A DNA stretch of 64,000 nucleotides from Sphingobium yanoikuyae (lineage in GTDB: Bacteria; Pseudomonadota; Alphaproteobacteria; Sphingomonadales; Sphingomonadaceae). The translations under genes and the position numbers were made by a program. The DNA is taken from positions 186,001 to 250,000 of the forward strand of contig NZ_CP053023.1 of assembly GCF_013001025.1 (NCBI RefSeq), in the 5' to 3' direction. Shown here piece after piece: positions 1 to 22,659 of this stretch; position 1 is the first letter of the stretch; each line of letters starts with the position of its first letter. The notes below the pieces were generated by a model, which worked only from the letters and a program-made list of their open reading frames with translations, was not told where the DNA came from and did not search any database.

Positions 1-1
1 G

Positions 2-1081
2 GCCCGAGAGGAGTTCTACAAGGGGATCAACGACACGCCGCCCGCCTTCACGTCTGAGAATTGCGCCAACACCTTCGGCCATATTTGGGAGAACCGGCGC
101 GGCCTCTATCTGCGCGGCATCGCCAATACCTTTTCGGCGCTGGACCGGCGCTTTCGCTCGCATGATGGCTTCAAGATCGGCAGCCGTCTCATCATTGAAC
201 GCGCCTTGAGCGACAGCCGGTCCTACTGGACCGACTATAATCGACGGGACACTCTGCGCGATGTCGAGCGGGTTTTCCGCGAGCTGGACGAGCTGGGGCC
301 GGTTCCTGAAAGCGCCAGCATCGCGCGCCGCATCACCGATACGCGCGAGGCGACCCCCTTCGTCATCGAGGGCGATTATTTCCGGGTCCGCGTCTTCGGG
401 AACGGTAATCTGCACCTGTGGTTCGAGCGCAAAGACCTCTTGCAGCGGGTGAACCTCTTGCTCGCCGAGCATTATGGCGAAGCAATCGGCGATGCCTACG
501 ACAACACCGAGGCGGACGATGCCCCGCAATTCCACATGACCCACGCCAAGGATTTCGGCGCGTTCATGTCGAGCGATGCCGTCGCGGCGCAGGTTATCCG
601 CCTCGCCGAGATCGGGCGGGGCATGGGTGTGCTGGAACCCAGCGCCGGGACCGGGATGCTGGCGAAGGCCGCGCGCGAGGCTGGCGGAAATGTCGCCTGC
701 ATCGAGATACAGCCGGGCATGGCGCACGAGCTGCGCGTCCTGCACGGCTTCGGCGATGTGCGCGAGGCAGATTTCCTCAGCCTCAAACCGAGGCCGATCT
801 ATGACCGCATCGTCATGAACCCGCCTTTTGATCGCGGGCGTGATTGCGATCATGTCCGCCATGCCTTCGCTTTCCTGAAGCCGGGGGGCGTGCTGATCGC
901 TGTCATGAGCGCCCGCGCCGAGTTTCGGGAGGATGCACGGCACCGCGCGCTCCACAAGATCGTCGATCAGTGCAAGCCGTCCTGGGGCTGGAAGAAGTGG
1001 CACGACCTTCCCGAAGGATCGTTCGCCCACGCCGGAACCAACATCAACACCGTCATTTTGGCAATCCGCAAGCCGGGGTGA
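2..1081 (+). CDS. DUF4942-type protein with adenine-N6 DNA methyltransferase domain (5' end outside window)
   Basis: The frame is open from base 2 to the TGA at 1079-1081, so the gene begins before the window; a TTG at 206 is internal. The visible 359 residues show a DUF4942-like N-terminal part followed by a class I SAM-methyltransferase fold. Motif I VLEPSAGTG starts at visible residue 210 and the catalytic NPPF is at 273-276, the signature of amino-methylating DNA methyltransferases (family knowledge). No restriction partner is visible, so it is probably an orphan methyltransferase of the plasmid. With ArdC at 7776 it fits protection of incoming plasmid DNA (inference). Confidence 0.8.
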   Translation, partial: AREEFYKGINDTPPAFTSENCANTFGHIWENRRGLYLRGIANTFSALDRRFRSHDGFKIGSRLIIERALSDSRSYWTDYNRRDTLRDVERVFRELDELGPVPESASIARRITDTREATPFVIEGDYFRVRVFGNGNLHLWFERKDLLQRVNLLLAEHYGEAIGDAYDNTEADDAPQFHMTHAKDFGAFMSSDAVAAQVIRLAEIGRGMGVLEPSAGTGMLAKAAREAGGNVACIEIQPGMAHELRVLHGFGDVREADFLSLKPRPIYDRIVMNPPFDRGRDCDHVRHAFAFLKPGGVLIAVMSARAEFREDARHRALHKIVDQCKPSWGWKKWHDLPEGSFAHAGTNINTVILAIRKPG

Positions 1082-1258
1082 CGGTGCGACAGAGCATAGA
1101 CAGCGGTTCCGGCAAAAAATCGAAGGCCGGCGCTCCCCGAGGAGCGCCGGCCTCATTCGTTGCTGGTTATCGCGTTCAATATCCAGCATGGATACGATCC
1201 TCACTGATCGGCTGACCAACTTGCGCTATGCTCCTCTTTTTGATGGGGACCATATGCC

Positions 1259-1534
1259 ATGACTGTCCCACCCATCGTTGCGCGCCGTGTCCTGCCTGCC
1301 CCGCAGCGCGAGGCATTGGACCTCATGCTTCGGGCGCTGTTCATTCTGGACTGCGCCGGGGAACTCGGCCCAGGTGCCGCGCTGTCTGGTGCGATCGACG
1401 CCCTGATTGATGCCCCCAACGCGGCCGATATGACGCCGCAGGAGCGCGCCGAGTTTGCGGGGCGGCTCGATGCCTATCAAGCTGCCGTGACGATCGCCCA
1501 GGGCAAGGCCCTGCCCCTCACATTCCACGGCTAA
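1259..1534 (+). CDS. Small protein of unknown function
   Basis: 91 residues, ATG start preceded by GGGGAC 8 bases upstream. It is mostly helical by eye (repeated Ala/Leu, for example LDLMLRALFILDCAGELGPG) with no motif I recognise. It lies between the methyltransferase and the repeated leader that precedes the ParB-like gene. The reverse strand is also open here, but only this frame has a plausible ribosome site. I cannot assign a function. Confidence 0.5.
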   Translation: MTVPPIVARRVLPAPQREALDLMLRALFILDCAGELGPGAALSGAIDALIDAPNAADMTPQERAEFAGRLDAYQAAVTIAQGKALPLTFHG

Positions 1535-1634
1535 TGGCGCAAGATCCGCGCGGCGGACTCTTGCGGCGCTTATAGTCCCGATCCCTTCTCCGCTCCCCGT
1601 CGAATAGATCGGGCGCGCGCTCGGCGCGCGGATC

Positions 1635-1870
1635 GAAGGGGGCGCCGCCCCCCTCTGTGCAAGGGCTGGACCGTCTCCCGCGCGTGCCGCGCGCTCGCTT
1701 GGCGATCGGGGCGGTCTCCCCACCCTTCCGCGCCTGCGGCTTGTGCAGGGCGGGCGATCCCCCTCCCCCCCGATCGGCCCCGGTTTGCACATTCACCCCC
1801 CGCTCTCGGCGAGGGCCAGAAGTCGATGGAGCCATCGCCTTCGGCTTCATTGAGAGAAAGGAACAGCACC
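1635..1870 (+). repeat. Repeated leader, copy A, upstream of the ParB-like gene
   Basis: About 235 bases running up to the ATG at 1871. Nearly the same sequence precedes ArdC (7544-7775) and, on the minus strand, the gene at 22166-22429. Each copy starts with a GGGGGCGCCGCCCCC hairpin and contains CTGTGCAAGGGCTGGACCG (copy C has one change). A CCGCGCCTGCGGCTTGTGC block, a C-rich run, CTCTCGGCGAGGGCCAGAAG, ATCGCCTTCGGCT and a purine-rich ribosome site before ATG follow. Because the similarity stops at the start codon of three unrelated genes, it is a regulatory leader and not a gene duplication. Confidence 0.85.
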
Positions 1871-4027
1871 ATGGTTAAGACTTCCAAGCCCACGATCCTG
1901 CATCTGACGGTCGATCAGCTTCATCGCAGCGACCTCAATGTCCGCAAGAAGCCATCCAGCGCCGCGAGCGATGCCGAGGTTTCCGCTTCGCTGCTGTCCG
2001 TCGGTCTCATTCAGCCGATGGTGGTTATCCCTCGCGAGGCCGGGGGGTATGAGGTGGTGGCCGGGGATCGCCGTCGCCGTCTTCTCACCGCGCTGGCCGA
2101 GGCCGATCCGAGCCGGAAGGGCATGACCTTTCCGTGCATGAAGGTCGATGATTTGAGCAAGGTCACGGAAATCAGCATGGCCGAGAACCGCGCGCGCGAG
2201 GCGATGTCGCTACCCGATGTCTATAAGGGTTTTGCCGCCATTCGGGCCGAGCGCCCCGAAGCAACCCTAGAGGAGCTGGGGGCGATGTTCGGCTATGATG
2301 TGGCCCGAACCGCGCGGATCATGCGGATCGCCAATCTTCACCCGGAAATCATGGACCTCTACAGCGCCGGGGAGATCGGGGACGCCGAGGCGCAGGCATA
2401 TGCCGCGACCGAGGATCGCTCGCTACAGATCGCGGTCTATCGCCAGTTGGAGCAGCAGGCGACCCGGCCTCACGAGAAGAACGCCAATGCCATTCGCAAG
2501 GCGATGAACTCCGGCGACCACGAATTGACGAAGCTCATGCGCTATGTCGGCGTCGATGCCTATCGCGCAGCGGGCGGGGATTTCGAGGCCGACCTGTTTT
2601 CGCAGGATGGTGCGGGGATCGTCCAGAATCCCGATGTGCTTCGCGACCTCGCAGAGCAGCGCGTCGAGGAGGACAAGGATCGGTACGAGCATAACATCGT
2701 CCGCAATGGCCGGATGCTCGGCGAGAAGTGGGGCCTTGCCGACCTGCAGTTTTCGTGGGCCGCTTCCCCGCCGCAGATCAAGCAATATGGCTATCTCTCG
2801 ACCGACCATGAACTTCGCATCCGGGAGCAGAAGCGGGGCGCGTTGCCCAAGGCTACCGCGAAAACCTATGCGTCGATGGAGAAGCGCCTTGCCGCGATGA
2901 TCGGTGAGGATGACGAGCCGCTGCCCGGTCAGGAGGAGGCTTTCGAGAAACTGACGGCCGAGATGGCGGAGCTGGACGCGCAGCGCACCGTCATCCTGCC
3001 CAGCAAGGGCGCGGTCGTGGCCGTGGCGTCCATCGAGAATGACGGCACTTTCGACGTCGAGCTTTGGTTCGCGGATCGAGCTGCCAAGGGCGCGGAATTG
3101 CCCAAGGGGGCGACCGGGCAGCGTGGACCCAAGCCCGAGCCGACACCGGGAGAGGCCGAGCGGGCGCGCTTCGGGCTGTCCAAGGACAATATGCAGGTGA
3201 TGATGCTGATCCGGCGCGACATGATCCGGGCCGAGTTGATGCAGTCGGCTTGCGCGGGTTCGTCGCTTGCGCTCGACTTCATGCTGTTCTCGCAAGCCCG
3301 CACCATTCTCACCCCGACGCCGGGTTATGGGAATACGGTCTATTTCCATGGCGAGCATCAGGGGATCAACGACCTGACGCATGACGAGGACGGTACGACC
3401 AAGATTCACGATCTTGTCGGGAGCCGCCCCGAACGGGCCGCATGGCTGACCACCAAGGAGGGCTTGGCATCGAGCGCGTGGGTTTCGACGCGCGATCCCA
3501 TCGAAGGCTTCATTCTGTTCCGTCAGTTGCCCGCGAGCGAGAAGAACAAGGTGACGGCCATGATCGCCGGACACATGCTCTTGGCTACCACATCGGTCTA
3601 TGCCGAGGGCCGCACCCCCCGCATGGTCCGCGAGCTTGCCAATTGCATCGAGGCGGAGCCGGGTTTCGGGCGTTGGCGCGATGCCGTCGAACTGGATGAG
3701 GCGTTTTTCTCCACCTTCTCGAACAAGGCCCGTCTGGCCCTTCTCGACACTTGGGGGCTGGCGGATCGAGCCAAGGGCATGAAGGGGAACGAAACCGCCG
3801 CCTTCTGCGCCCGCATCGCGAATTGCGACGATCAGGACGCCAAGTTGCTCGGCCTTCATCCCGATGATGTTGCCGAGGCCGTGAACTGGCTTCCCGACTT
3901 CATGGAGAGCGGCAACGTGCCCCCTCTGCCCGTCGAGGAGGAGGAACAGGAAGACGACGAGGGCGACGAGTTTGGGGACGATGAGGATCAGGACGACGAT
4001 CACGAGCAGATCGACGAAGCCGCTTGA
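1871..4027 (+). CDS. Large ParB/Spo0J-family plasmid protein
   Basis: 718 residues. The start at 1871 is chosen over an in-frame ATG at 1826 because 1826 lies inside the repeated leader, and the leader similarity ends at 1871. The N-terminal ParB/Srx fold shows a GDRRRR motif at residues 65-70 and the ENRARE box near 105-110, followed by a helix-turn-helix region of about residues 115-165. The last 30 residues are almost purely acidic. ParB proteins bind parS sites and use CTP (family knowledge), but no ParA lies beside this gene; the nearest is at 17317. At more than twice normal ParB length it may be a ParB-derived DNA-binding accessory protein and not a partition factor. Confidence 0.85.
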   Translation: MVKTSKPTILHLTVDQLHRSDLNVRKKPSSAASDAEVSASLLSVGLIQPMVVIPREAGGYEVVAGDRRRRLLTALAEADPSRKGMTFPCMKVDDLSKVTEISMAENRAREAMSLPDVYKGFAAIRAERPEATLEELGAMFGYDVARTARIMRIANLHPEIMDLYSAGEIGDAEAQAYAATEDRSLQIAVYRQLEQQATRPHEKNANAIRKAMNSGDHELTKLMRYVGVDAYRAAGGDFEADLFSQDGAGIVQNPDVLRDLAEQRVEEDKDRYEHNIVRNGRMLGEKWGLADLQFSWAASPPQIKQYGYLSTDHELRIREQKRGALPKATAKTYASMEKRLAAMIGEDDEPLPGQEEAFEKLTAEMAELDAQRTVILPSKGAVVAVASIENDGTFDVELWFADRAAKGAELPKGATGQRGPKPEPTPGEAERARFGLSKDNMQVMMLIRRDMIRAELMQSACAGSSLALDFMLFSQARTILTPTPGYGNTVYFHGEHQGINDLTHDEDGTTKIHDLVGSRPERAAWLTTKEGLASSAWVSTRDPIEGFILFRQLPASEKNKVTAMIAGHMLLATTSVYAEGRTPRMVRELANCIEAEPGFGRWRDAVELDEAFFSTFSNKARLALLDTWGLADRAKGMKGNETAAFCARIANCDDQDAKLLGLHPDDVAEAVNWLPDFMESGNVPPLPVEEEEQEDDEGDEFGDDEDQDDDHEQIDEAA

Positions 4028-4082
4028 TCCACGGCGGGGGGCTTAGGCCCCCCGCTTCATTCCCGATGACGGAGGCACCACC

Positions 4083-4718
4083 ATGGCCCGCCATTGCGTT
4101 CGCGAACCCCGCTATATCCCACCCGTTCACGTCATAGGCGAGCAGCCCGATCTATTCGGAGGCCCGACCATCAGCCACGCGACCGAGCGCAAGCCGATCA
4201 GCAACAAGTGGATGAGCGACATGACGAAATGGGCCGTGTCGCCATGGCTCGGCGACATGGACCCGGAAAGCGCCCTTGAGCCGGAAACCGTTCTCGAGAC
4301 AGCGCCCGCCCCGCTCCCCGTCTATCTGGTCGCCTGCGTCGCCGCGAAGCTGGACCACGCGGCTGAGGCGCGCGACCTCTACGCCTCCCCTTGGTTCCGC
4401 AAGGCCCGCGCCCATGTCGAGCGCACCGGCGCCCCGTGGCTGATCCTTTCGGCCAAGCATGGCCTGATCGCCCCCAGCGCCGTCATCGAGCCGTATGATG
4501 TCACCCTTGGCGCGATGGGGGCTGGCGCGCGCCGCCTATGGGGCGCCCGTGTGTTGGACGAGCTGGCCCGCGCTGTGGACGCCCGCGCTCCGCTGATCGT
4601 CCTCGCAGGGCGGACTTACCGCGATCCCCTCTGGCCGAGCATCGCCCAGCGGGCGAGCGTGCCGATGGAGGGCATGGGCATCGGCGAGCAACTGGCTTGG
4701 CTCACGCGAGAGGCGTGA
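4083..4718 (+). CDS. DUF6884-like protein with possible clamp-binding motif
   Basis: 211 residues, ATG after GACGGAGGCACCACC, 55 bases downstream of the ParB-like gene. The C-terminal half (about residues 78-205) resembles the DUF6884/YaaA-like fold: LVACVAAKLDH, DLYASPWFRKAR, WLILSAKHGLIAP and EPYDVTL are typical blocks. The N-terminal part carries QPDLFGGPTI at residues 21-30, similar to the QxxLF motif that binds the replication sliding clamp. The same QPDLF-GP-I block occurs in the protein at 8759. The enzymatic role of DUF6884 is not known to me. Confidence 0.65.
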   Translation: MARHCVREPRYIPPVHVIGEQPDLFGGPTISHATERKPISNKWMSDMTKWAVSPWLGDMDPESALEPETVLETAPAPLPVYLVACVAAKLDHAAEARDLYASPWFRKARAHVERTGAPWLILSAKHGLIAPSAVIEPYDVTLGAMGAGARRLWGARVLDELARAVDARAPLIVLAGRTYRDPLWPSIAQRASVPMEGMGIGEQLAWLTREA

Positions 4719-5200
4719 TAGAGTTAGGTCGACCGGGGGGAAGGCGAAAACAACCCCGGTCAATCATGGTGCGGCGGGAGGCTTACCCAAGTCTCCCGCC
4801 CCTTTCGTTCCGGCAGCGCCGGGATCGCACGCGGCCAGGGCCGCGCGGAATCGCTCGCGCGCTTCGCCCTTCGGGCCGCGATCCCTTGGGAAGGGGGCCG
4901 CCCCGGTGCGGCGCGGCAATCGGCGCCGCGCGTGCCGCGCAGCAGCTCCTGTCCAGACCGGCCTGCGGCCGGTGAAGGCAGGGCGTGGCGACGGTGGTGG
5001 GAATATTCCTTCTCTACGACAGTTGGCATTTTACCATGGGTTTCAGCCCCGACCGTCAAGGATCAACGGTCCCCCCAAAATCCTGCGGATTTCGGTTCCC
5101 CCGTTGCCCGCTGTCGCGGCCGCTTCGCGGTCCCTGACCGCCGGGGCCGCTACGCGCCCATGGTCCGACACTCCTGTTCGTCAACGATAAGGAGAACAGG
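4719..5200 (+). other. GC-rich stretch without a convincing gene
   Basis: No reading frame with coding character. An inverted repeat GACCGGGG (4731-4738) / CCCCGGTC (4754-4761) follows the DUF6884 gene but has no T-run, so it is only a possible 3'-end structure. Several short GC palindromes, such as GCGGCCGCTTCGCGG near 5120, follow. The last 20 bases hold the AAGGAG ribosome site of the next gene. Confidence 0.5.
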
Positions 5201-5455
5201 ATGCAAGTGACATTGTTTAAGGCTCTGAAATCAATCAAGGTAGGTGATGACCAAGCTACGGCGGTCGTCGAGCAGCTAGAGGAGTTTATGGCGCTCAAGA
5301 TCAAGGAAGCGAACGCCGCGCTGGAAGCGCAGAACAAGGCGCTGGAGAGCAAGATCGACGGCCTGAAAACGCAGCTTACGATCCTCAGCATCATGCTCGG
5401 GGTCATCAGCCTAGCGTCTCTGGCGGGTCCGATACTCGCCAAGCTCATCAAATGA
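5201..5455 (+). CDS. Small coiled-coil protein with C-terminal membrane anchor
   Basis: 84 residues, ATG with a consensus AAGGAG 7 bases upstream. Residues 20-60 form a heptad-like coiled coil (VVEQLEEFMALKIKEANAAL onward). Residues 62-80 are a hydrophobic segment (LSIMLGVISLASLAGPILA) ending in KLIK, so a tail-anchored inner-membrane protein is likely. It ends just before a GGGAGGGC/GCCCTCCC hairpin. Function unknown. Confidence 0.65.
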   Translation: MQVTLFKALKSIKVGDDQATAVVEQLEEFMALKIKEANAALEAQNKALESKIDGLKTQLTILSIMLGVISLASLAGPILAKLIK

Positions 5456-5460
5456 GCAGC

Positions 5461-5480
5461 GGGAGGGCTTCGGCCCTCCC
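5461..5480 (+). terminator. Hairpin after the coiled-coil gene, probably interrupted by the IS110 element
   Basis: GGGAGGGC-TTCG-GCCCTCCC is a perfect stem with a tetraloop, 6 bases after the stop codon. The T-run expected of an intrinsic terminator is absent on this side, where the IS begins at about 5488. A run of T appears immediately beyond the other IS end (6838-6844). The element may have inserted between stem and T-run. Confidence 0.5.
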
Positions 5481-5487
5481 TTATGGG

Positions 5488-6834
5488 ATGGCCCGCCCCT
5501 TTTCCCCGGCATCAGGTATGATGCCGGTGCTTGAAAAGGAAAGGAGCGGACCGATGTCTATTGTTATCCTTGGCGTTGATTTGGGCAAGAATGCCTGCAG
5601 TGTCGTAGGCGTTGATGCAGCAGGCGCTGTCATCGTGCGTAAGTCGATGCGCCGACAGACACTTATCGATTACGTGACCAAGCTTCCGGCTTGCGTGATT
5701 GCAATGGAGGCGTGCTGTGGTGCCCACAACCTTGGTCGCCTTTTCGCCGCGCAGGGGCACGAAATCAGATTGATGTCGCCGGAGTACGTACGCCCGTATG
5801 TCAAAGCGCAGAAGAATGATGATCGTGATGCGGAGGGGATTGCCGAGGCCGCCTCGCGCCCGACTATGCGCTTCGTCGAACTCAAGACTCAGGAGCAGTT
5901 GGACATCCAGACCCTCCACCGCGTCAGGTCCCGCCTGGTAGCCGAGCGCACAAACCTTATCAACCAACTGCGGGCGATCCTCCTGGAGCGGGGGACCATT
6001 TTTCCGGCCGGCCGGCGCAAGCTGGAGTTGGGCATTGATGCCATGCTGGCCGCCGAAGATACGGCCCTATCACCACGCTTGAAGCAACTGGTGGGTGAAC
6101 TGCGCGCCGAATGGCACGAACTTGATACCAAGGTCGAGGCACTGAACGGCGAGTTTGTCGAACTGGCTCGCAATGATGCAGCTGCCCGGCGGCTCACGTC
6201 CATCCCCGGCATCGGCACGTTGAACGCAACCGCTTTGATTGCAGCCGTGGGCGATGCCAGCAGCTTTGCCAAAGCGCGAGACTTGGGTGCTTGGCTCGGC
6301 TTGGTACCCAGGCAACATACTACCGGCGGCAAGCCCCGGCTGCTCGGCATCTCCAAGCGTGGCAACACCTATTTGCGCACTTTGCTCATCCATGGCGCCC
6401 GGGCAGCATTACCGTCACTGGCGCGCAGCGAAACCCCGCTGGGACGTTGGTTGACAGGAATGATCGAGCGAGGAGTTCATCGCAACGCAATCGTCGTCGC
6501 ATTGGCTAATAAACTGGCGCGGATCGCTTGGGCAGCCCTTCGCAAAGAAGTGAGCTTCGAACGCGGCTATCCAGCAGCGGCATAACGGATCGGCTGCGTG
6601 CTTCTGCGCGCGTAGCCCAACGATGTTTGCAGGAAGGATCGTGAAGATGGCCTGACAGTCGATCGGCGTCTGGAAAGCCCGGGCAAAAAAATGGCACCTG
6701 TTGCCGGTTCCCTTATTGTGGCTCCAGACGTGCGGATGTCCATCTTGGCCACGGGATGCTCCCGTGAGACCGCATACGTTGACGCAGACTGATCAGAACA
6801 CCGTAAAATCCTACTTGCAAACGGGGCGGGCCAT
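5488..6834 (+). mobile_element. IS110-family insertion sequence (IS1111-like, with short inverted repeats)
   Basis: A 1347-base element with 12-base perfect ends: ATGGCCCGCCCC at 5488-5499 and GGGGCGGGCCAT at 6823-6834. It carries one transposase gene. About 240 non-coding bases follow the transposase, as is usual for IS110 elements, whose non-coding end encodes the bridge RNA (family knowledge). No target duplication is evident. Exact ends are inferred from the repeats. Confidence 0.75.
5554..6585 (+). CDS. IS110-family transposase (DEDD recombinase)
   Basis: 343 residues. The ATG at 5554 has AAGGAG 8 bases upstream; an upstream in-frame ATG at 5452 lies outside the element. The N-terminal RuvC-like DEDD domain shows GVDLGKN (Asp near residue 8), AMEACCG and the DDRDAEG block. 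The C-terminal transposase_20 domain has LTSIPGIGTLNATALIAAVG (HhH-like), LGLVPRQHTTGGK and GNTYLRTLLIHGAR with the conserved serine region upstream. It is intact and probably active. Confidence 0.93.
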   Translation: MSIVILGVDLGKNACSVVGVDAAGAVIVRKSMRRQTLIDYVTKLPACVIAMEACCGAHNLGRLFAAQGHEIRLMSPEYVRPYVKAQKNDDRDAEGIAEAASRPTMRFVELKTQEQLDIQTLHRVRSRLVAERTNLINQLRAILLERGTIFPAGRRKLELGIDAMLAAEDTALSPRLKQLVGELRAEWHELDTKVEALNGEFVELARNDAAARRLTSIPGIGTLNATALIAAVGDASSFAKARDLGAWLGLVPRQHTTGGKPRLLGISKRGNTYLRTLLIHGARAALPSLARSETPLGRWLTGMIERGVHRNAIVVALANKLARIAWAALRKEVSFERGYPAAA

Positions 6835-7020
6835 ACGTTTTTTTGCTTCGTTCCGCAAACCCGCCCGCCATGCTGATCGGCATCGAGCCGACACCATGCC
6901 GTGAACGCGCGACGGCGCGTCCCTTCGATCGGCACCGCGACCAGGTGCGCGCCGATCAAGGTGCGCTGCCTTATCGTCAGCGCAAAATGATGATAGGTAG
7001 TCATCGGAAGGAGCCGTGTC
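6586..7020 (+). ncRNA. IS110 non-coding end (possible bridge RNA) and following intergenic DNA
   Basis: Bases 6586-6834 are the non-coding right part of the IS110 element; members of the family encode a bridge RNA in such a segment, but I cannot fold it here. From 6835 to 7020 is host DNA: a run of T (6838-6844), then sequence with no convincing gene and an AAGGAG ribosome site at 7009-7014 for the next gene. Confidence 0.35.
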
Positions 7021-7281
7021 GTGACGATCATCCCTGTTCTGCTGATCCTGGCCGGCATCGTCTTGTGGAAGTTCACGCGGCGAGCTGCCTTCAATCGCCG
7101 GAATGAATATGGCGTGGAGGTCTTTAATTCCTACGGCCACATGCAGGGCCGGCGCTTCATTGAGAAGACGCTTCGCTTCGGTGCTGTGATCTTGGTGCTG
7201 GTTGGCATCGGCCATGCAATTGCTCCGCACCAAGGGTCGTCGTCGGCCGCGCCTGTCGAAACATCGCATCCCAAGAAGTAG
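7021..7281 (+). CDS. Small two-TM membrane protein
   Basis: 86 residues, GTG start chosen because of AAGGAG 6 bases upstream. Residues 3-18 (IIPVLLILAGIVLWKF) and about 52-67 (GAVILVLVGIGHAIA) are membrane segments separated by a basic loop with NRRNEYGVEVFNSYGHMQGR. No family recognised. A repeated 3' element begins 3 bases after its stop. Confidence 0.6.
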   Translation: MTIIPVLLILAGIVLWKFTRRAAFNRRNEYGVEVFNSYGHMQGRRFIEKTLRFGAVILVLVGIGHAIAPHQGSSSAAPVETSHPKK

Positions 7282-7283
7282 TC

Positions 7284-7376
7284 GGGCGCGGGCCTTCGGC
7301 CACGGCTCTATCGCCGCTTCGCTGCGACCGAACCCGCAAAGCGGTTTCGGCCAGAGGTGACGATCCTCGCGTGAAA
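7284..7376 (+). repeat. Repeated 3'-flanking element, copy 1
   Basis: Begins GGGCGCGGGCCTTCGGCCAC directly after the small membrane gene and continues through CGAACCCGCAAAGCGGTTTCG and GTGACGATCCTCGC. The same order of words follows the second SSB gene at 53244-53340. It holds a CGAACCCGCAAAGCGGTTTCG-like hairpin. Both copies sit immediately 3' of a stop codon, so a role in transcript ends is possible. Confidence 0.7.
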
Positions 7377-7543
7377 TCCAATGCCCGAGATCCGCACAGC
7401 GGATCTCGACGCCGATAGTGGCGGCTCCCGAGCGGGGCCGCGGGCGTCGGCTTGGTCTCCGCTTCGCTGCGACCAGGCCGCGCCGATCGAGCTGCCGGCC
7501 TTCGGCCTGATCCTCCGCAGCGGCGCTTTGACGCCGCCGTCAT

Positions 7544-7775
7544 GAAGGGGGCGCCGCCCCCCTCTGTGCAAGGGCTGGACCGTCTCCGCGCGTGACGCGC
7601 TCCGCTTGGCGACCGGGGCGGTCTCCCCACCCTTCCGCGCCTGCGGCTTGTGCAGGGCGGGCGATCCCCCTCCCCCCCGATCGGCCCCATTTGCCCATTC
7701 ACCCCCCGCTCTCGGCGAGGGCCAGAAGTCGATGTGAGCCATCGCCTTCGGCTCTATTCCAGAAAGGGAAACACC
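7544..7775 (+). repeat. Repeated leader, copy B, upstream of ArdC
   Basis: Nearly identical to copy A (1635-1870) and to copy C on the other strand (22430-22659), from the GGGGGCGCCGCCCCC hairpin to the start codon. The 3' end reads CAGAAAGGGAAACACC before ATG. The stretch 7377-7543 before it is a GC-rich mosaic related to 11500-11670 (GCTTGGTCTCCGCTTCGCTG against GCTTGGTCTTCGCTGCGCTA). Confidence 0.88.
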
Positions 7776-8702
7776 ATGAAGCGCAGCACCCCCAGCAACA
7801 CCCAGCGGGCGGACATCTATCAGGAGGTGACGGACCATATCATTTCCCTGCTGGAAAGCGGTTGCCGTCCTTGGTCCCCGTCGTGGACGAGTGGAGCGGC
7901 GACCTTGCCCCGGCGTCACGGGGGCGAAGCCTATCAGGGCATCAATATCCTGTTGCTTTGGTCGCAGGCGATGCGGCGCGGCTACCGCAATCCCACATGG
8001 ATGACCTTCAAGCAGGCTTTGGAGCTTGGTGGGAACGTCCGCAAGGGCGAGCGCGGCTCGATGGTTGTCTATGCCGGAAGCCTCACCCCGAAGGGCGGCG
8101 AGGACAGCCCTGCCGATGGCGAAGGCGAGCGGCGTATCCCCTTCCTGAAACGCTATGTCGTTTTCAACGTCGAGCAGATCGAGGGGCTTCCCGAGGGCAA
8201 ATATCCCACCCCGGAGCCGGTCATTCAGAACCGGGACGAGCGCGACGCTGACCTTGATCGGGCTTTCGCCGCCTATGGCGTGGCGATCACCGAGCAGGAG
8301 GGCGGGGCCTATTATAATGAGCAGGCCGATCGCATCACAATGCCGCTTTACGAGAGTTTCACCAGCGGCAACGCTTTCTATGCGACCCTTGCCCATGAGG
8401 GAATCCATGCCAGCGGTCACAAGAGCCGGTTGGACCGCGAGACGCTGCATAAATATGGCGAAAGCATCGCGACGAGGGCGAAGGAGGAACTTGTGGCCGA
8501 GATCGGGGCCGCCTTCCTTTGCGCCGCCCTTGGCATGGAGCCGACCGAACGGGAGGACCACGCCGCCTATATCGACCATTGGTTGAGCGCCCTTCGGCAC
8601 GACAAACGGGCGATCTTTCAGGCCGCGACCGCAGCACAGGCCGCCAGCAATTTCATCCTCGCCGCCATGGACGCGGACGAGGCCCAGCGCGCCGCAGCGT
8701 GA
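7776..8702 (+). CDS. ardC: ArdC-family antirestriction protein with zincin metallopeptidase domain
   Basis: 308 residues. The start at 7776 follows an AGAAAGGGA ribosome site; an upstream in-frame ATG at 7650 is inside the leader repeat. The N-terminal ArdC-like ssDNA-binding domain spans about residues 10-140 (PWSPSW, AYQGINILLLW, NPTWMTFKQA, VRKGERG). The C-terminal zincin-like domain has HEGIH at 207-211 and a third histidine in ASGH. ArdC proteins protect incoming plasmid DNA from restriction (family knowledge). Next gene starts 57 bases downstream. Confidence 0.92.
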   Translation: MKRSTPSNTQRADIYQEVTDHIISLLESGCRPWSPSWTSGAATLPRRHGGEAYQGINILLLWSQAMRRGYRNPTWMTFKQALELGGNVRKGERGSMVVYAGSLTPKGGEDSPADGEGERRIPFLKRYVVFNVEQIEGLPEGKYPTPEPVIQNRDERDADLDRAFAAYGVAITEQEGGAYYNEQADRITMPLYESFTSGNAFYATLAHEGIHASGHKSRLDRETLHKYGESIATRAKEELVAEIGAAFLCAALGMEPTEREDHAAYIDHWLSALRHDKRAIFQAATAAQAASNFILAAMDADEAQRAAA

Positions 8703-8758
8703 TCGAGGGGGGCGGCCCAGCGCCGCCCACCTCCTCCCCGTCACCATAGGACAGGCAG

Positions 8759-9691
8759 ATGAGCGCCTTCGACTTCCAGCAATTCCGCGCGGCGCTTGAT
8801 GCCCTTTTGCCCGTCGAGCGGGCGCAGGCCGTCTTTCCAGCACTCCGGTCCTTGCCCATCGGCGCGCGCGTCGGGCGCTATGTCCGAGAGCCGGGAGCCG
8901 ACAAGTGGCGCTGCGAATACACATCGACCCGCCATAATCGCGCCGGGGAGGAGCTGACCTCCCACCATCGCACCATGACCTCTGCCTGGTCGATTGCGAT
9001 GGACGTGGGTTTTCCATCGAAACACCGGGAAGCGGAGATCGAAGAGATCGCGCGCGCGGCTCATGCCGTGATGCTCGCGCAGGGTCTCACCCGGCTCCCC
9101 GAGCGCGGCAGCGCCGAGGATGACGCGGCAATGGCGGAACTCTCCACCGATGAAGCGGCCGAGATCGTTGAGATCGAGCGCGAGGCGGTCGCTCCGGCAC
9201 CGGCCACGAAGGATGATATCTGGCGTCGCCAATATCGGGAGGACATGGCTCGCAAGCGGACGATGGGGGTACAGCCCGACCTATTCGATGGACCGTCGAT
9301 CACCCACTATCACCGTCTTCCTCGCCGTCCCGCCTTTACGATGCCGCCCCGCGAAACGCTCGCCGCGAAGCTGGAGCGGATCAAGGGCAATCCGCTTGCA
9401 ACCTTTGGTCCTCCGGGCGATCGCCAGCCACTATCGCCCATGGAGAAGGAGAAGCTTTTGCGTTCGGCCGCGAACTGGCTTCGCGTCGGGCAGCGCGTGC
9501 GGGTCAAGGACTCCATGCGGTCGGTCGATGGCAGCATCGAGCGGCGCGTTCTCGGCCGCGAGGGCGTCATTTGGCGCCTGTGCAGCGTGATCTTTGACGA
9601 TCACACCTATGTCTTCCTCGATCCCGTAAGAGGCGAACGCAGCGAAAAGGTGGTGTTTATCGAAATTCGCGACTTGGAGCCTATCGAATAG
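8759..9691 (+). CDS. Plasmid protein of unknown function with QPDLF motif
   Basis: 310 residues, ATG, 57 bases after ArdC and probably co-transcribed with it. N-terminal part (residues 1-110) is of unknown fold with VGRYVREPGADKWRCEY and HRTMTSAWSIAMDVGFP. The middle holds VQPDLFDGPSITHY, matching the QPDLF-GP-I block of the protein at 4083. The C-terminal 80 residues (LRVGQRVRVKDSMRSVDGSI onward) look like a small beta-barrel. The repeated QPDLF block suggests sliding-clamp binding (inference). Confidence 0.6.
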   Translation: MSAFDFQQFRAALDALLPVERAQAVFPALRSLPIGARVGRYVREPGADKWRCEYTSTRHNRAGEELTSHHRTMTSAWSIAMDVGFPSKHREAEIEEIARAAHAVMLAQGLTRLPERGSAEDDAAMAELSTDEAAEIVEIEREAVAPAPATKDDIWRRQYREDMARKRTMGVQPDLFDGPSITHYHRLPRRPAFTMPPRETLAAKLERIKGNPLATFGPPGDRQPLSPMEKEKLLRSAANWLRVGQRVRVKDSMRSVDGSIERRVLGREGVIWRLCSVIFDDHTYVFLDPVRGERSEKVVFIEIRDLEPIE

Positions 9692-9832
9692 GCAGGCCGA
9701 ATCCGCTCGGCGCCCCCGATTTGGTCGCCTCTTAAGCCGCGAAAATCGGGACCAAATTGGCCGATTTTCTTGCCTTTTTCACCCATTTCCGCTAGACCGT
9801 TGTGCCAGCCCGATTGTTGAAAGGATCGAGCC

Positions 9833-10057
9833 ATGAACGCGAACACGCCCTTCCCCGCACCGCGTCCCGCCATCAGCGCGGCCGAGCGGGCGCGCCGCGA
9901 AAAGGCGGTCAGCTTCGCCCGTGGCAGCGTCCGCTACGAGGGCGGAATCCTCACCGATGAGATCGAGCGGATCAACGCCCGTTTCATCGCCGGCGAGCTG
10001 ACCACGGAGGAGTTTGTCAGCGCGGTTGGAGCATCCGACACCGCTCGCCTTGGTTGA
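9833..10057 (+). CDS. vbhA: VbhA-like antitoxin of Fic toxin
   Basis: 74 residues, ATG with AAAGGA 7 bases upstream. It carries the inhibitory helix motif (S/T)xxxE(G/N) as S32-VRY-E36-G37. In VbhA this inserts the glutamate into the Fic active site and blocks ATP gamma-phosphate binding (family knowledge). The C-terminal FIAGELTTEEFVSAVG is typical of the VbhA fold. It overlaps the Fic gene by 44 bases, in the order antitoxin then toxin. Confidence 0.88.
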   Translation: MNANTPFPAPRPAISAAERARREKAVSFARGSVRYEGGILTDEIERINARFIAGELTTEEFVSAVGASDTARLG

Positions 10058-11105: not shown

Positions 11106-11118
11106 CCTCTGAAGGCGG

Positions 11119-11460: not shown

Positions 11461-11884
11461 TCCCGCATTTCTACATAGGCCCGCTATGGGCGTCCATAAT
11501 GACGCGAGATCCGCTGCGCGGATCGCGGCGCTGATCGAGATCGGCCCCGTGGCCGGTGCCGCGAGCGCGGGCTTGGTCTTCGCTGCGCTACGCTACGACC
11601 AGGCCCGCGCTGGTCGAGCTGTCCGGCCTTCAGCCGCGATGATCGAGCGCCGCTTTGGCGTCGCCGGCAACAAGGGGTCGTCGCTCCCTCTGTGCAGGGG
11701 CTGGACCGTCTCGGCCGCGTTCCGCTGCCTCCCTTGGCGATCGGGCGGTATCCCCGGCCTTCCCTCCACGTTGTTCCGCAGGTAGTCTTTTGCCCTCTCC
11801 CCTCACTCGCTTCGCGTGGGTAGAAGAGGACAGGCCACCAGGACCGAGACAAAACGACGTCGAACCATCGTAAAGGCGACTAAG
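11461..11884 (+). repeat. Degenerate fourth leader copy (D) and mosaic intergenic DNA
   Basis: From 11500 the sequence parallels the block at 7377-7543. From 11671 it parallels the repeated leader: CTCCCTCTGTGCAGGGGCTG and GGACCGTCTC are kept, followed by CCCTTGGCGATCGGGCGGTA. After about 11770 similarity fades and a different end (CTCACTCGCTTCGCGTGGGT) leads to the gene at 11885. No coding frame is convincing. This is a diverged copy in the same position relative to a start codon. Confidence 0.6.
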
Positions 11885-12262
11885 ATGCCAAACAGAATCC
11901 CGCTCGATCCGGCTTTGCGGGCGGGCTTTGACGAGACATCCAACGACCAGCGCAGCAAGGCAGAACTGGATGCGTGGTGGGACCATCCCTTTGGCCGGAC
12001 CCGCCCTGACGGTCGCATCGACGTGCGTTGCCTCAATGGCGGAGCGCATGACAGAAGCTCCGCCCTTGGCGTCGCCGACTCCTATGACGAAGCATGTGCC
12101 TTGGCAGAGGAAAAGCAGGCCAACTGGGTCCGGCAGCGGGAACAGCCGATCCCTTCCTGTCGGGACGGGAAAATCATCATGGTTCGGCAGCCGCAGAGGC
12201 CCGATGAACAGGAAGTCATTTTGGGGGAATATCAGCCAGAGCAGGAATCGAGTGGAGCCTAA
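11885..12262 (+). CDS. Conserved-looking protein of unknown function
   Basis: 125 residues. The ATG at 11885 follows GTAAAGGCGACTAAG; an in-frame ATG at 11816 lies within the leader-like region and is less likely. Contains WWDHPFGRTRPDGRIDVRCL and GVADSYDEACALAEEKQANW, an alpha/beta pattern without known motifs. Convergent with umuC 30 bases downstream. Its degenerate copy of the shared leader groups it with ParB, ArdC and the gene at 22166. Confidence 0.6.
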   Translation: MPNRIPLDPALRAGFDETSNDQRSKAELDAWWDHPFGRTRPDGRIDVRCLNGGAHDRSSALGVADSYDEACALAEEKQANWVRQREQPIPSCRDGKIIMVRQPQRPDEQEVILGEYQPEQESSGA

Positions 12263-12292
12263 TCCTCCATTTTGCTTATCCCCATCGCGACG

Positions 12293-13555: not shown

Positions 13556-13564
13556 CGGCCGCGC

Positions 13565-14002: not shown

Positions 14003-14043
14003 GTTCAGAATCCCTGTCTCTTGCTCCCTCATAACGCGCATAG

Positions 14044-14058: not shown

Positions 14059-14106
14059 ACGCCTTGTTGGCGGTTCGTCGCTTTTCCACAATCGCGTCGC
14101 TTTCCT

Positions 14107-18893: not shown

Positions 18894-19237
18894 GAGGTTA
18901 CTCCGATTGCGATGGCAGGATTTGACGGCCGGATCATGCCGAATGAGGGTTGAGAAAGCCAGATGTGTGTTATGCTCTCGGTCGCAAAAAACTAAACGAA
19001 TGACGCGCGCCAAAGGCGCACAGCTTGATTGATGAAGCCTCGCCGTGGGCCGAGGTGGCGAGGGGAGGGAAGGGCGCCGAAAACAGGCACCTCCTCCTCC
19101 ACGTCTTTATCGGTTTGGGCTTGAGAAATGGAGGTTCGAGGGGTAGGTAGAAGCAAGGTTTAGGTATGGCAGGATATGCCACATGGCACCAATGTAATAC
19201 ATTGGCTGATGTGGTGCCGCTGCACGGGGCTGTAGGG
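18894..19237. other. Intergenic region before the mobilisation genes (candidate oriT area)
   Basis: 344 bases between divergent genes, no convincing coding frame. It contains a GCGCC-AAA-GGCGC hairpin (19007-19019) and a 17-base palindrome at 19189. Relaxase origins of transfer usually lie in such a region next to the MobC-like gene, but I see no nic consensus that I can name. Confidence 0.4.
19189..19205. promoter_or_regulatory. Perfect 17-base palindrome, probable operator of the mobilisation operon
   Basis: CCAATGTA-A-TACATTGG, perfect 8-base arms, centred about 40 bases upstream of the chosen MobC-like start. The downstream protein has two ribbon-helix-helix domains, which usually bind such palindromes and repress their own operon. 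Confidence 0.65.
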
Positions 19238-19819
19238 ATGATGGTAAGTCTGCGTTTGAAGGAAGAGCTGATCGCCGAGATCGACCGCATCGCTTCCGCA
19301 AATGGGCAAACCCGCAGTGCGTGGATCGCGAACGTCCTTTCGCGGGCAGCGCTTTCTCCCGAGAACGATGATCTTCCAATCGGCGTAGAGGAGGGACGGG
19401 GACATCCTGACGATCAGGTTCGCGTGACGGTGCGCCTCCATCGCAGCGAGATCGAGGCAATTGACAGGATTGGTACGCCGCTACGTCTCACCCGCAATGA
19501 ATGGATCAAGCGAGCGCTACGATGGCAGCTTTGGGACAAAGCTGGGATGCTTCGTCTCGCGCCGGTTACACAGACAGAGATCGGTAAGGTACGTAAGCAG
19601 GTGCTGGCGATAGGCCGAAACATCAACCAAGCCGTCCATGCGATGAACGCGGCCAATCAGCCGGAGAGCACGCTTAACCTGGCCCGGATCGCCGAACCGT
19701 TCCTGGAAACCTGCGCGGACCTGAAGGCCCTTCTGTTCGCAACGCGGCGAGAGCTGTCCTCATATGTTGGGGGCGAAGTGGGCTATTGGACCGGGGCATT
19801 TAAGGATGCCGGGAAGTGA
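19238..19819 (+). CDS. Double ribbon-helix-helix mobilisation protein (MobC-like)
   Basis: 193 residues from the ATG at 19238 (GGGCTGTAGGG before it); an in-frame ATG at 19166 would put the palindrome inside the gene. The first RHH is about residues 3-38 (VSLRLKEELIAEIDRIASAN), the second about 62-100 (VRVTVRLHRSEIEAIDRI). A MobC-like part follows with KQVLAIGRNINQAVHAMNAA. It overlaps the relaxase start as GTGA. It probably binds oriT DNA to assist the relaxase and controls the operon. Confidence 0.8.
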   Translation: MMVSLRLKEELIAEIDRIASANGQTRSAWIANVLSRAALSPENDDLPIGVEEGRGHPDDQVRVTVRLHRSEIEAIDRIGTPLRLTRNEWIKRALRWQLWDKAGMLRLAPVTQTEIGKVRKQVLAIGRNINQAVHAMNAANQPESTLNLARIAEPFLETCADLKALLFATRRELSSYVGGEVGYWTGAFKDAGK

Positions 19820-21240
19820 GTTTCCGGCTCTCCCCCGGCACGCTCGATTCCATGGCGGGCGTCTATGCGCCTCCCAAGAAGTATCGGATGGGATCAGGTG
19901 GCGGAAAGGGCAAGAGTGCGAAGTCGGGTGACGCGATACTTGTCTTTGCGCTCGCCGCTATGGTTCCGAAATCGTCGCATTCGGGGACGGCGTTCCGTCC
20001 CAGCTCGCAGACGAAACACGCCTTTGGAACAGGCTCACATGCGGGCGTCAGCGGGCGTGCAATCGCGGCGATGGATCGCACCGCGCGACGATCGCCAGAG
20101 GTGATGGTCCGTATCACGGGACGTCAACATGGCGGTGGGCACGTCCTCGCAAACTTTTCTTATATCAGCCGCCTTGGGCATGGAGCGGAGAAGCAAGTGC
20201 CGCTCTATACGAGTGATGGCGACATTCTCCACGACGGGAAGGACATGCAAATTCTTGCCCAGGATTGGCAGGAATGGGAGATGGGAGATGATGCGCGTCG
20301 CAAGGGCGCTACGTCCATTTCCATGATCCTTTCCATGCCTGCGGGCACCGATCCCGAGCGGTTGAGAGAGGCGGCGCTGGACTTCGCACGCGAAGAGTTT
20401 GCGAACCGATCATGGGTGGCGTCGCTCCATGTCGATCGCGACCATCCCCACGTTCACCTCACTTTCGCGCGCCGCGATCATGATGGCCGCCGTTTCCATC
20501 CGAGCCGCGATGACCTCTTTCGCTATCGGCAGCGGTTTGCGGCGAAGCTGCGAGATCGAGGTATTGAGGCGAACGCCACTCCTGCGAGAGCGCGGGGCAT
20601 CGACCCGAAGCATGAGCCGATCGCGGCGAAGAAAGTGCGGGAGAAGGGGCAGGTTCCGCGCGTGGACAAAAGCCGTGCCGAACGCGCGCGGAGCTTCCGC
20701 GACCGAGGCATTCCCGATCCGGTGAACGCTGTCCTTGCCAATCAGCGGGCGACGGTGTTGACGGCCTATGAGCGGTCGATTGCGGAGCTGTCATCGTCCC
20801 CCTCGCTCGCCGATCAGGCGATCGCCAAGAGCCTTGAGAAATTCGTCGCTTCCATGCCGGCGCCGGAACCCAATTCGGTGCGGGCGGATCGATTGGCGAG
20901 GGGCGAGCGCGATGCTCCATCTCAGCCTGGTCGCGACGGAGGTGTGACCCCGGCGCTAGATCCGGTTGCCGCTGCGCTCGCGCGGGCGAAGGCGATGCGC
21001 GAGCAGATCGAGGCGGGCAAGAGCGACTTGTCGGCGCGCGAGCAGCCGCAGAGCGGCGCAAATGCCGAGCGTCCTTCTGGTGTATCGGATCGTCTGCGCT
21101 CGCTGATGGACGAGGCCAGTCGGTCGGCTCCGGCGCCGGAGCCTGGCAAGGCGGATGACATCATGCGACAGACCCAGGAGCGGGATCGAGAGCAACGCGA
21201 GCGCGATCGGGCACGCGATAAGGATGGACCACGGCGATGA
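19816..21240 (+). CDS. MOBP-type relaxase (VirD2/TraI-like mobilisation nuclease)
   Basis: 474 residues, GTG start overlapping the previous stop (GTGA). The nuclease domain has a candidate catalytic Tyr116 in ANFSYISRLG and the three-His motif LHVDRDHPHVHL at 204-215 (His205, His212, His214). The C-terminal third is charged and repetitive (QERDREQRERDRARDKDG). It should nick oriT and pilot the strand through a conjugation channel. As the window's own type IV secretion genes are only debris, transfer would need a helper plasmid or genes outside the window. Confidence 0.9.
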   Translation: MSFRLSPGTLDSMAGVYAPPKKYRMGSGGGKGKSAKSGDAILVFALAAMVPKSSHSGTAFRPSSQTKHAFGTGSHAGVSGRAIAAMDRTARRSPEVMVRITGRQHGGGHVLANFSYISRLGHGAEKQVPLYTSDGDILHDGKDMQILAQDWQEWEMGDDARRKGATSISMILSMPAGTDPERLREAALDFAREEFANRSWVASLHVDRDHPHVHLTFARRDHDGRRFHPSRDDLFRYRQRFAAKLRDRGIEANATPARARGIDPKHEPIAAKKVREKGQVPRVDKSRAERARSFRDRGIPDPVNAVLANQRATVLTAYERSIAELSSSPSLADQAIAKSLEKFVASMPAPEPNSVRADRLARGERDAPSQPGRDGGVTPALDPVAAALARAKAMREQIEAGKSDLSAREQPQSGANAERPSGVSDRLRSLMDEASRSAPAPEPGKADDIMRQTQERDREQRERDRARDKDGPRR

Positions 21241-22165: not shown

Positions 22166-22429
22166 CTACGGCACACGATCTTCGCACGAGCCTGGCTCAA
22201 GACCTGATCCTACACGTACCATGTTGGTCAGAAATTCGGCAAAATGCCGGCCTTCGTCCAAGTCGATCCACAGGGGTTGGAAGGGGCCTTCAATCCTATC
22301 TAGCCACTCTCGCAGCTTTGCTCGGTTGTCGGCAGCGTTCTCACGTTCGACAAGCGCGCTCGCTATCGCGGCTGCCTGCATGGAATAGCCGACATTGGGC
22401 AGGCCGGCAGGAAAACTCGTAACACCCAT
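22166..22429 (-). CDS. Small protein under the shared leader
   Basis: 87 residues from the ATG at 22429, the point where leader copy C ends. Contains SMQAAAIASALVERENAADN and FQPLWIDLDEGRHFAEFLTN. No family recognised. Its expression should follow that of ParB-like and ArdC genes that carry the same leader. Convergent with the relaxase operon. Confidence 0.65.
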   Translation of the reverse strand: MGVTSFPAGLPNVGYSMQAAAIASALVERENAADNRAKLREWLDRIEGPFQPLWIDLDEGRHFAEFLTNMVRVGSGLEPGSCEDRVP

Positions 22430-22659
22430 TATTGTCCCTTTCTGGAATAGAGCCGAAGGCGATGGCTCACATCGACTTCTGGCCCTCGCCGAGAGCGGGG
22501 GGTGAATGGGCAAATGGGGCCGATCGGGGGGGAGGGGGATCGCCCGCCCTGCACAAGCCGCAGGCGCGGAAGGGTGGGGAGACCGCCCCGATCGCCAAGC
22601 GGAGCGCGCCCGCGCGGAGACGGTCCAGCCCTTGTCCAGAGGGGGGCGGCGCCCCCTTC
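22430..22659 (-). repeat. Repeated leader, copy C (minus strand)
   Basis: Reverse complement of copies A and B over its whole length, from the GGGGGCGCCGCCCCC hairpin (22659 side) to CAGAAAGGGACAATA before the ATG at 22429. It is closer to copy B than to copy A. A further perfect hairpin AGCGCCGC-TAAA-GCGGCGCT lies just upstream at 22666-22685. Confidence 0.88.

What the first reader, a model, noticed from the sequence alone, without database searches (positions are those of the whole stretch)
1635..1870. A leader of about 230 bp is repeated upstream of three unrelated plasmid genes, with a degenerate fourth copy
Seen: copies at 1635-1870 (ParB-like), 7544-7775 (ArdC) and 22430-22659 on the minus strand (unknown 87-residue protein) are nearly identical, end exactly at the start codons and contain the same GGGGGCGCCGCCCCC hairpin and internal blocks. 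A worn copy at 11671-11884 precedes another unknown gene. The genes differ, so the unit under selection is the leader. Inference: a cis-acting regulatory RNA or shared promoter that coordinates early-entry functions (antirestriction, ParB-like, unknowns), or a single-stranded promoter active on conjugative entry. I know of no named element with this sequence.
Basis: partly seen in the sequence, partly recalled or inferred. Interest (0 to 1): 0.8.

Follow-up and report, generated by a model that had tools for sequence, protein, structure and literature searches.

The report
Candidate single-strand promoter of plasmid early genes
A repeated DNA leader in front of unrelated plasmid genes belongs to a widespread, unnamed element that can fold into a hairpin and probably helps switch on defence-blocking genes while the plasmid is still a single strand entering a new cell; this is inferred from sequence, not yet tested.

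Summary
The repeat is real: three near-identical ~230-nt leaders plus a worn copy, and one more full copy just left of the window. It is a local case of a widespread element for which I found no name. Its heart is an 82-nt hairpin (H1) whose outer stem varies freely yet stays complementary, with nearly constant loops. I compared 145 distinct copies, 115 of them from a pattern scan, from Alpha-, Beta- and Gammaproteobacteria. The chosen start codon lies 86-116 nt after the core in 105 of 133 copies. Genes that follow include ArdC, ArdA, ParB-like, DUF932, DUF3768 and RadC. On 39 plasmids 53 of 62 element places share the relaxase gene's strand, 49 of them 5-30 kb on its 5' side, so the transferred strand would be the template. 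Mispairs in the stems are mostly A.C, rarely G.U, on the coding strand: against an mRNA hairpin, moderately for folding of the template strand. Best reading: a leading-region single-strand promoter that works like Frpo/ssi, without detected homology to it. Against: no transcription data; misoriented copies in about four lineages; the energy difference between strands is mostly base composition; the window's own copies do not fold into H1 as their minimum-energy structure.

The parts
1635..1870 (+). Leader copy 1, before the ParB-like gene
1638..1652 (.). Upstream hairpin H0, GGGGGCGCCGCCCCC, of copy 1
   Evidence: a stem of 6 bp or more upstream in 100 of 149 rows against 23 of 149 shuffled
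1699..1780 (+). H1 hairpin of copy 1 (coding-strand frame; proposed to fold on the minus strand)
   Evidence: model R1, 82.2 bits, E 1.1e-15
1871..4027 (+). ParB-like gene
   Evidence: ORF (listed from an upstream start), annotated ParB/RepB/Spo0J family in pDE2
7544..7775 (+). Leader copy 2, before ArdC
7606..7687 (+). H1 hairpin of copy 2
   Evidence: model R1, 77.8 bits, E 1.2e-14
7702..7755 (+). Second and third inverted repeats (H2, H3) between H1 and the ribosome-binding site; limits approximate
   Evidence: sequence; comparison across copies
7776..8702 (+). ArdC gene (zincin-like metallopeptidase)
   Evidence: ORF; annotation of the same gene in pDE2
11671..11884 (+). Worn copy; left half of H1 kept, right arm lost
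   Evidence: not reported by R1
11885..12262 (+). Small gene of unknown function after the worn copy
   Evidence: no Pfam match; annotated hypothetical in pDE2
19169..19176 (-). Possible nic site TATCCTGC; overlaps the first codons of the ORF at 19166
   Evidence: The pattern alone is not significant: 11 in the window, 7.5 expected. Its place before the relaxase genes recurs
19166..19819 (+). Ribbon-helix-helix gene beside the relaxase gene
   Evidence: ORF; annotation in pDE2
19816..21240 (+). Relaxase gene (MOBP by typing of pDE2)
22430..22659 (-). Leader copy 3, opposite orientation, on the far side of the relaxase gene
22517..22598 (-). H1 hairpin of copy 3
   Evidence: model R1, 82.2 bits, E 1.1e-15
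22166..22429 (-). 87-residue ORF of unknown function after copy 3
   Evidence: no match in NCBIfam or Pfam; annotated hypothetical in pDE2

Best explanation
The leader is a leading-region single-strand promoter. In conjugation the strand nicked at oriT enters first, and it is the template strand of the leading-region genes. While it is single-stranded, H1 folds on it: an outer stem of free sequence, an asymmetric bubble (AGGGGGA on the folded strand), an inner stem, a second internal loop and a tip. A polymerase recognises the bubble and loops and starts an mRNA, so that ArdC, ArdA, ParB-like, DUF932 and similar proteins are made before the second strand exists; conversion to duplex removes H1 and shuts the genes off. 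Shown here: the conserved covarying structure, the spacing to the start codon, the gene classes, co-orientation with the relaxase gene, and the avoidance of G.U on the coding strand. Inferred: that the minus strand is the transferred one, that H1 folds on it in the cell, that RNA is made there, that conversion shuts it off, and what the polymerase is.
For: Covariation: 87.7% of cells paired, score 0.376 against 0.116 shuffled (0 of 500 reach it) and at most 0.123 for slid partners, 30 copies. Spacing: 105 of 133 copies, 43 of 61 clusters, at 86-116 nt. Genes: ArdC, ArdA, RadC, DUF932 and others. Orientation: 53 of 62 places on 39 plasmids share the relaxase strand; 17 relaxase groups mostly same, 1 opposite, 1 tied. 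Nic-like motif before the relaxase genes on the expected strand in the window and in L011, L017 and L010, a variant in L020. Wobble: 80 A.C against 12 G.U in 67 clusters; the A.C share exceeds that expected from column shuffles, nominal p 0.003 in P1 and 0.008 in P2. F has the same kind of layout: two leaders 90% identical before unrelated leading genes, with SSB, ParB-like, DUF932, PsiB and an antirestriction protein mostly on one strand.
Against: No transcription data. Nine of 62 places are misoriented: copy 3 and its relatives, a composite plasmid, two Caulobacter and two Bradyrhizobium records; copy 3 still precedes an ORF on its own strand, as a gene-bound duplex element would. T-strand folding energy is better in 62 of 70 clusters, but shuffles explain most of it (36 of 70 below their own shuffled mean). 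In P1, A.C is no better tolerated than other mismatches (0.45 against 0.37 of expectation), and in P2 G.U is not more avoided than others (0.24 against 0.14). H2 and H3 show no strand preference in mispairs. The window's copies 1 and 2 do not give H1 as their minimum-energy DNA structure (z -0.62 and -0.14); z was below -2 in 4 of 10 copies folded. No sigma-70 boxes were found in window 7300-7800, though shuffles also gave 0.0.
Confidence: 0.58

Rival explanations
1. A structured 5' leader of the mRNA: H1 folds in the transcript from an ordinary duplex promoter further upstream and controls transcription or translation.
For: Fixed spacing to the start codon and position before it; with RNA parameters the coding strand forms P1 in 130 and P2 in 104 of 149 rows.
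Against: In P1 G.U is at 0.16 of expectation, more avoided than other mismatches at 0.37 (nominal p 0.003); the pair next to the inner GGG is G-C in 33, A.C in 32 and never G.U in 67 clusters. No Rfam match.
Confidence: 0.1
2. A duplex promoter or operator bound by a plasmid or host regulator, perhaps with cruciform extrusion of H1 under supercoiling.
For: Misoriented copies follow the orientation of the gene where one exists (copy 3); one regulator could serve scattered genes.
Against: P1 letters differ freely between lineages but stay complementary, not expected of a sequence-read duplex site; no sigma-70-like boxes in the one region scanned, a weak test.
Confidence: 0.13
3. A single-strand initiation site for DNA priming (host DnaG or a plasmid primase) that starts second-strand synthesis on the transferred strand.
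For: Strand orientation; toprim-domain genes near copies in L010, L011 and L024. Frpo itself is described as making primer RNA too (title of the cited 1997 paper).
Against: A priming site needs no fixed distance to a start codon, yet 105 of 133 copies keep it.
Confidence: 0.12
4. A structured RNA transcribed away from the gene, from the strand opposite to it.
For: A.C on the coding strand is G.U in such an RNA.
Against: Spacing is tied to the gene. Tips show one GNRA tetraloop and no UNCG among 65 distinct short tips by automatic assignment, a weak argument without a control.
Confidence: 0.03
5. A mobile repeat that happens to land in intergenic regions.
For: Several copies per plasmid, resembling each other.
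Against: Fixed spacing to start codons and compensatory changes. Target-site duplications were not examined.
Confidence: 0.02

Closest known systems
Frpo / ssi single-strand promoters of F and ColIb-P9 (passages of PMC9849209, PMC11541004, PMC12826799)
   Same: Leader repeated before unrelated leading-region genes; antirestriction, ParB-like and DUF932 genes nearby; transferred strand as template; hairpin on it (for our element the last two are inferred).
   Different: R1 finds nothing in F or seven related leaders; best direct BLAST match is 34 nt at 82%, E 0.002 in a 36-kb search. Frpo hairpins are described as carrying canonical -10 and -35 boxes; none were recognised here.
EGeRS1 of the pLS20 family (passages of PMC8708921)
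   Same: Conserved inverted-repeat-rich leaders before ardC and other establishment genes of one plasmid, each next to a ribosome-binding site.
   Different: 420-750 bp, Bacillus; its authors rule out a single-strand promoter because the transferred strand is the non-template strand, opposite to what is inferred here. Sequences were not compared.
radC motif (RF01754) and STAXI motif of Weinberg et al. 2010 (passages of PMC2864571)
   Same: STAXI lies near SSB, integrase, topoisomerase and antirestriction genes, and its authors weigh a single-stranded-DNA role. For the radC motif only the table row was seen; its plasmid-gene context is recalled.
   Different: No Rfam match in the window or in nine loci scanned.
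N4 virion RNA polymerase promoters (recalled, from no call)
   Same: Hairpin promoter on the template strand with a small loop.
   Different: A short hairpin read by a phage polymerase; no such polymerase was looked for here.

Membership tests
Frpo/ssi single-strand promoters | Lies in the leading region, repeated before unrelated genes | tested here: met
   49 of 62 places are co-oriented and 5-30 kb on the 5' side of the relaxase gene; several copies per plasmid. That this side leads is inferred
Frpo/ssi single-strand promoters | Transferred strand is the template of the downstream genes | tested here: inconclusive
   53 of 62 places fit and nic-like motifs lie on the expected strand, but nic was not mapped and the motif alone is at chance frequency
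Frpo/ssi single-strand promoters | Stable hairpin on the transferred strand | tested here: inconclusive
   Covariation and wobble support it; the energy difference is mostly composition; window copies do not fold so by energy
Frpo/ssi single-strand promoters | Sequence homology to known Frpo | tested here: not met
   R1: 0 matches in F and seven related leaders; direct BLAST best E 0.002 over 34 nt; a Thiothrix copy has no match in E. coli genomes; none of the 60 PLSDB records is enterobacterial
Frpo/ssi single-strand promoters | Canonical -35 and -10 boxes | tested here: not met
   Pattern scan of window 7300-7800: 0 found, shuffles 0.0, so weak; by eye no such boxes in the aligned core
Frpo/ssi single-strand promoters | RNA synthesis from single-stranded template, early and transient expression | not testable with these tools
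   needs experiments
Cis-regulatory mRNA leader | Helix conserved with G.U in the RNA | tested here: not met
   12 G.U against 80 A.C in 67 clusters; P1 G.U at 0.16 of expectation, other mismatches 0.37
radC (RF01754) or STAXI (RF01728) motif | Match to the family's covariance model | tested here: not met
   No match at the element. The genome search with RF01754 rang nowhere, controls included, and says nothing
EGeRS1 | Transferred strand is the non-template strand | tested here: inconclusive
   Geometry points the other way here, with nic not mapped
Transposable repeat | Position independent of start codons | tested here: not met
   105 of 133 copies at 86-116 nt
Transposable repeat | Target-site duplications | not tested
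   flanks were not examined for duplications

The most novel reading that the evidence does not exclude
A second, independently evolved class of single-strand promoters on conjugative elements of several proteobacterial classes. It is recognised by its shape and an almost invariant AGGGGGA bubble instead of sigma-70 boxes, and so is read by an unusual mode of the host RNA polymerase or by another enzyme such as a plasmid primase, making one element both early promoter and primer site.
Probability: 0.3. Interest if true: 0.88.

Novelty: new variant of a known kind. Interest (0 to 1): 0.72.

Why it matters
In the papers seen here single-strand promoters are described for F-like and ColIb-type plasmids. 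If this element does the same job, early expression of antirestriction genes from the entering strand was invented more than once. The model R1 and a simple pattern would then mark leading regions, transfer direction and unknown anti-defence genes in alphaproteobacterial plasmids and integrated elements. The apparent lack of sigma-70 boxes makes the question of what reads such a promoter directly testable.

Tried and rejected
Rfam: no match at the element; the RF01754 genome search rang nowhere, controls included, and is uninformative. Energy of the two strands looked promising (62 of 70 clusters) but shuffles showed it to be mostly composition, so it is not used as support. H2 and H3 as strand-specific hairpins: no asymmetry (H2 13 A.C and 13 G.U; H3 19 and 23). 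Frpo as a control for the fold: nine aligned leaders, too alike and one poorly aligned, consensus energy -88.3 on the transferred against -75.5 on the other strand; only concordant. First counts used 149 rows with four double reads; final counts use 145 rows and 67 clusters, while still used the larger set. A first reading by eye of a MerR-like gene behind the misoriented Caulobacter copy was not borne out: only short frames there. The nic pattern by itself is at chance frequency in the window.

Papers: five searches aimed at this element or its kind listed no report of it; two of them showed only part of their hits (20 of 97, 30 of 45). One search looked for the radC motif. Only passages were seen of PMC11541004, PMC9849209, PMC8708921, PMC12826799 and PMC2864571.

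Full report
OBSERVATION. A further copy with one difference in 233 nt from the 7544 copy ends 1.1 kb left of the window on the same 282,770-bp contig. The plasmid pDE2 of Sphingobium baderi, which matches 67% of window 1-20000 at 99.7%, carries the same set. There the genes that follow are annotated DUF3768, ParB-like, zincin-like metallopeptidase (ArdC) and, for the misoriented copy, a hypothetical protein.

EXTENT. Blastn against PLSDB finds relatives in 60 records (107 places), mostly Sphingomonadaceae, with a shorter core in Cereibacter, Rhizobium, Thiothrix (Gamma) and Nitrosospira (Beta). Two wider queries found 78 and 65 records. Plasmids typed MOBP, MOBQ and MOBF carry it. A covariance model of 30 copies (R1) rings in 13 of 199 genomes of the family, 8 of 289 of the class and 9 of 299 of the phylum, own genome included each time, so only a minority of genomes carry it. 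Its hits include AT-rich versions with outer stems such as AAGAAAAACG/CGTTTTTCTT that keep TTTCCCC and mostly GGGNGATCCCCCT. Because the genome pattern contained GTGCAGNNCGGGYGATCCCCCTCC, constancy of those letters in the 115 of 145 copies that come from that scan is by construction. Their near-constancy is evidence only in the 30 copies found by BLAST and nhmmer and in the model hits.

ANATOMY, in the coding-strand frame. H1 has an outer stem P1 of 12 pairs in the model; a bubble of T-N against TCCCCCT; an inner stem P2 (CCC-N-N-CCT with AGG-N-N-GGG), extended in the predicted consensus by T-C/G-A around a bulged pyrimidine; an internal loop of TCC against GTGC; and a tip of at most 22 nt in 95 of 145 copies, longer and variable in the rest. 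On 30 copies 87.7% of cells pair (shuffled 71.0%), 104 cells change on both sides (shuffled 37.3), and the covariation score is 0.376 (shuffled 0.116, 0 of 500 reach it; slid partners at most 0.123). The bare count of pairs changed on both sides, 13 of 22, is less striking (shuffled 11.2, 22 of 500 reach it). Downstream lie two more inverted repeats, H2 and H3, then a purine-rich ribosome-binding site and the start codon. Upstream, 100 of 149 rows have a stem of 6 bp or more (23 of 149 shuffled).

SPACING AND GENES. In 133 copies with enough DNA downstream the chosen ORF starts 86-116 nt after the core in 105, and in 43 of 61 clusters. The script takes the longest ORF, so some outliers are mis-picks: for L011 it took 282 nt, while the annotated gene starts about 106 nt after the core. 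ORFs of 200 aa or more follow in 101 of 133 copies, against 24 of 133 in the opposite direction upstream. The 126 non-redundant ORFs fall into 27 single-linkage groups. Pfam was run on representatives of 20 of the 27: 11 have a family, 9 have none. The largest groups are ParB-like (37 ORFs; HTH_ParB just over its cut-off), ArdC (28), DUF932 (12) and a group represented by DUF3768 (10). ArdA (two groups), DUF4942, RadC, DUF1419, DUF2958 and DUF3846 also occur. Model hits not bound by the pattern again precede ArdC (L026, L036, L042) and ArdA (L034, L050).

COMPARISON WITH F. The F region beside traM encodes SSB, ParB-like, DUF932, PsiB and an antirestriction protein, mostly on one strand. Its two leaders, before ssb and before the gene upstream of DUF932, are 90% identical over 528 columns. 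Company and layout are thus alike, but the sequence is not: R1 finds nothing in F or seven related leaders, and direct BLAST gives at best 34 nt at 82% (E 0.002 in a 36-kb search).

STRAND GEOMETRY. On 39 plasmids with a listed relaxase, 53 of 62 element places are on the relaxase strand, 49 of them 5.0-29.4 kb on its 5' side. By relaxase group, set by eye, 17 are mostly same, 1 opposite and 1 tied; 17 of 18 gives sign-test p 7e-5. The window has TATCCTGC on the minus strand at 19169-19176. CAGGATA stands before the relaxase genes of L011, L017 and L010, and CGGGATA in L020. The resemblance to the RP4-type nic is recalled, and the pattern is at chance frequency in the window (11 against 7.5 expected); only its recurring place argues for it. 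If it is nic, and as relaxase genes typically enter last (a passage of PMC11541004), the minus strand is transferred and leads into copies 1 and 2 and the extra copy, for which it is the template. Exceptions: copy 3 and its relatives in three plasmids, two places on a 505-kb plasmid, one copy 0.8 kb from the relaxase in each of two Caulobacter plasmids, and two Bradyrhizobium records. Copy 3 precedes an 87-residue ORF on its own strand. The Caulobacter copy in L017 has only short frames there and may be a relic.

WHICH STRAND FOLDS. In 67 clusters the mispairs of P1 and P2 include 80 A.C and 12 G.U in the coding-strand frame. The arms are skewed in composition, so expectations were taken from column shuffles. 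P1: A.C 0.45, G.U 0.16, other 0.37 of expectation. P2: A.C 0.90, G.U 0.24, other 0.14. The A.C share is above expectation (nominal p 0.003 and 0.008; cells are not independent). In P1 G.U is avoided more than other mismatches (nominal p 0.003); in P2 it is not (all). The pair next to the inner GGG is G-C in 33, A.C in 32 and never G.U in 67 clusters. A.C on the coding strand is G.T on the template strand. This speaks against an mRNA helix and moderately for a template-strand helix. An RNA read from the opposite strand would fit too, but does not explain the spacing. Among 65 distinct short tips an automatic assignment gives 26 GNA triloops on the template strand; that such loops are unusually stable in DNA is recalled, and no control was run.

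ENERGY. With DNA parameters P2 forms in 118 of 149 rows on the template strand against 78 on the coding strand, and the template strand folds better in 62 of 70 clusters, against 37 and 31 of 69 for two coding controls. Shuffles show that most of this is composition: -2.91 observed, -2.34 shuffled, and only 36 of 70 clusters are below their own shuffled mean. The two F leaders exceed theirs (-14.2 against -1.9, sd 3.9; -8.6 against -1.6, sd 3.3). Of ten copies folded as single DNA strands, four have z below -2; window copies 1 and 2 do not (z -0.62 and -0.14) and do not show H1 as minimum-energy structure. The structure therefore rests on comparison, not on energy.

MECHANISM AND NOVELTY. The simplest reading is a leading-region single-strand promoter that works like Frpo. 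It is not filed as a member, since homology and canonical boxes were tested and not found (the box scan is weak). P1 is too variable to carry a fixed -10 box, so recognition should rest on the bubble, P2 and the loops. What reads it is unknown; a priming site, or a combined promoter and primer site, remains possible. Five paper searches listed no report of it; subscription papers and preprints are not in that library. I rate it a new variant of a known kind, with a real chance of being a separate class.

Noticed in passing
window 7596-7769 and 22435-22608: Copies 2 and 3 form a 174-nt inverted repeat at 99% around the segment with oriT and relaxase; recombination between them would invert it and change which strand leads.
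   Followed up: no
window 5461-6843: IS110-family element (98% to an annotated IS110 transposase) between the ParB-like and ArdC genes; pDE2, 99.7% identical around it, has no annotated transposase at the corresponding place.
   Followed up: no
window 12293-14001: Y-family polymerase and S24 peptidase (UmuDC-like) genes in the leading region, by comparison with other plasmids.
   Followed up: no
L029, L035, L046-L048, L052, L058, L063, L075-L077: Many rhizobial, Brevundimonas and other copies have a tip some 30-40 nt longer than the short form, with variable sequence inside.
   Followed up: no
L017:10326-10405 (-) and NZ_CP013003.1 near 58975: In two Caulobacter plasmids a misoriented copy lies 0.8 kb from the relaxase gene, next to the presumed oriT.
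   Followed up: partly
L066, L124: Copies on contigs of two Saprospiraceae (Bacteroidota) MAGs; true transfer or misbinned plasmid contigs.
   Followed up: no
L130:2446-3633 (-), L053, L110, L112, L039: A 395-396-residue protein follows the element in several genomes; the representatives scanned, L130 and L039, match no Pfam family and could be unknown early genes.
   Followed up: partly
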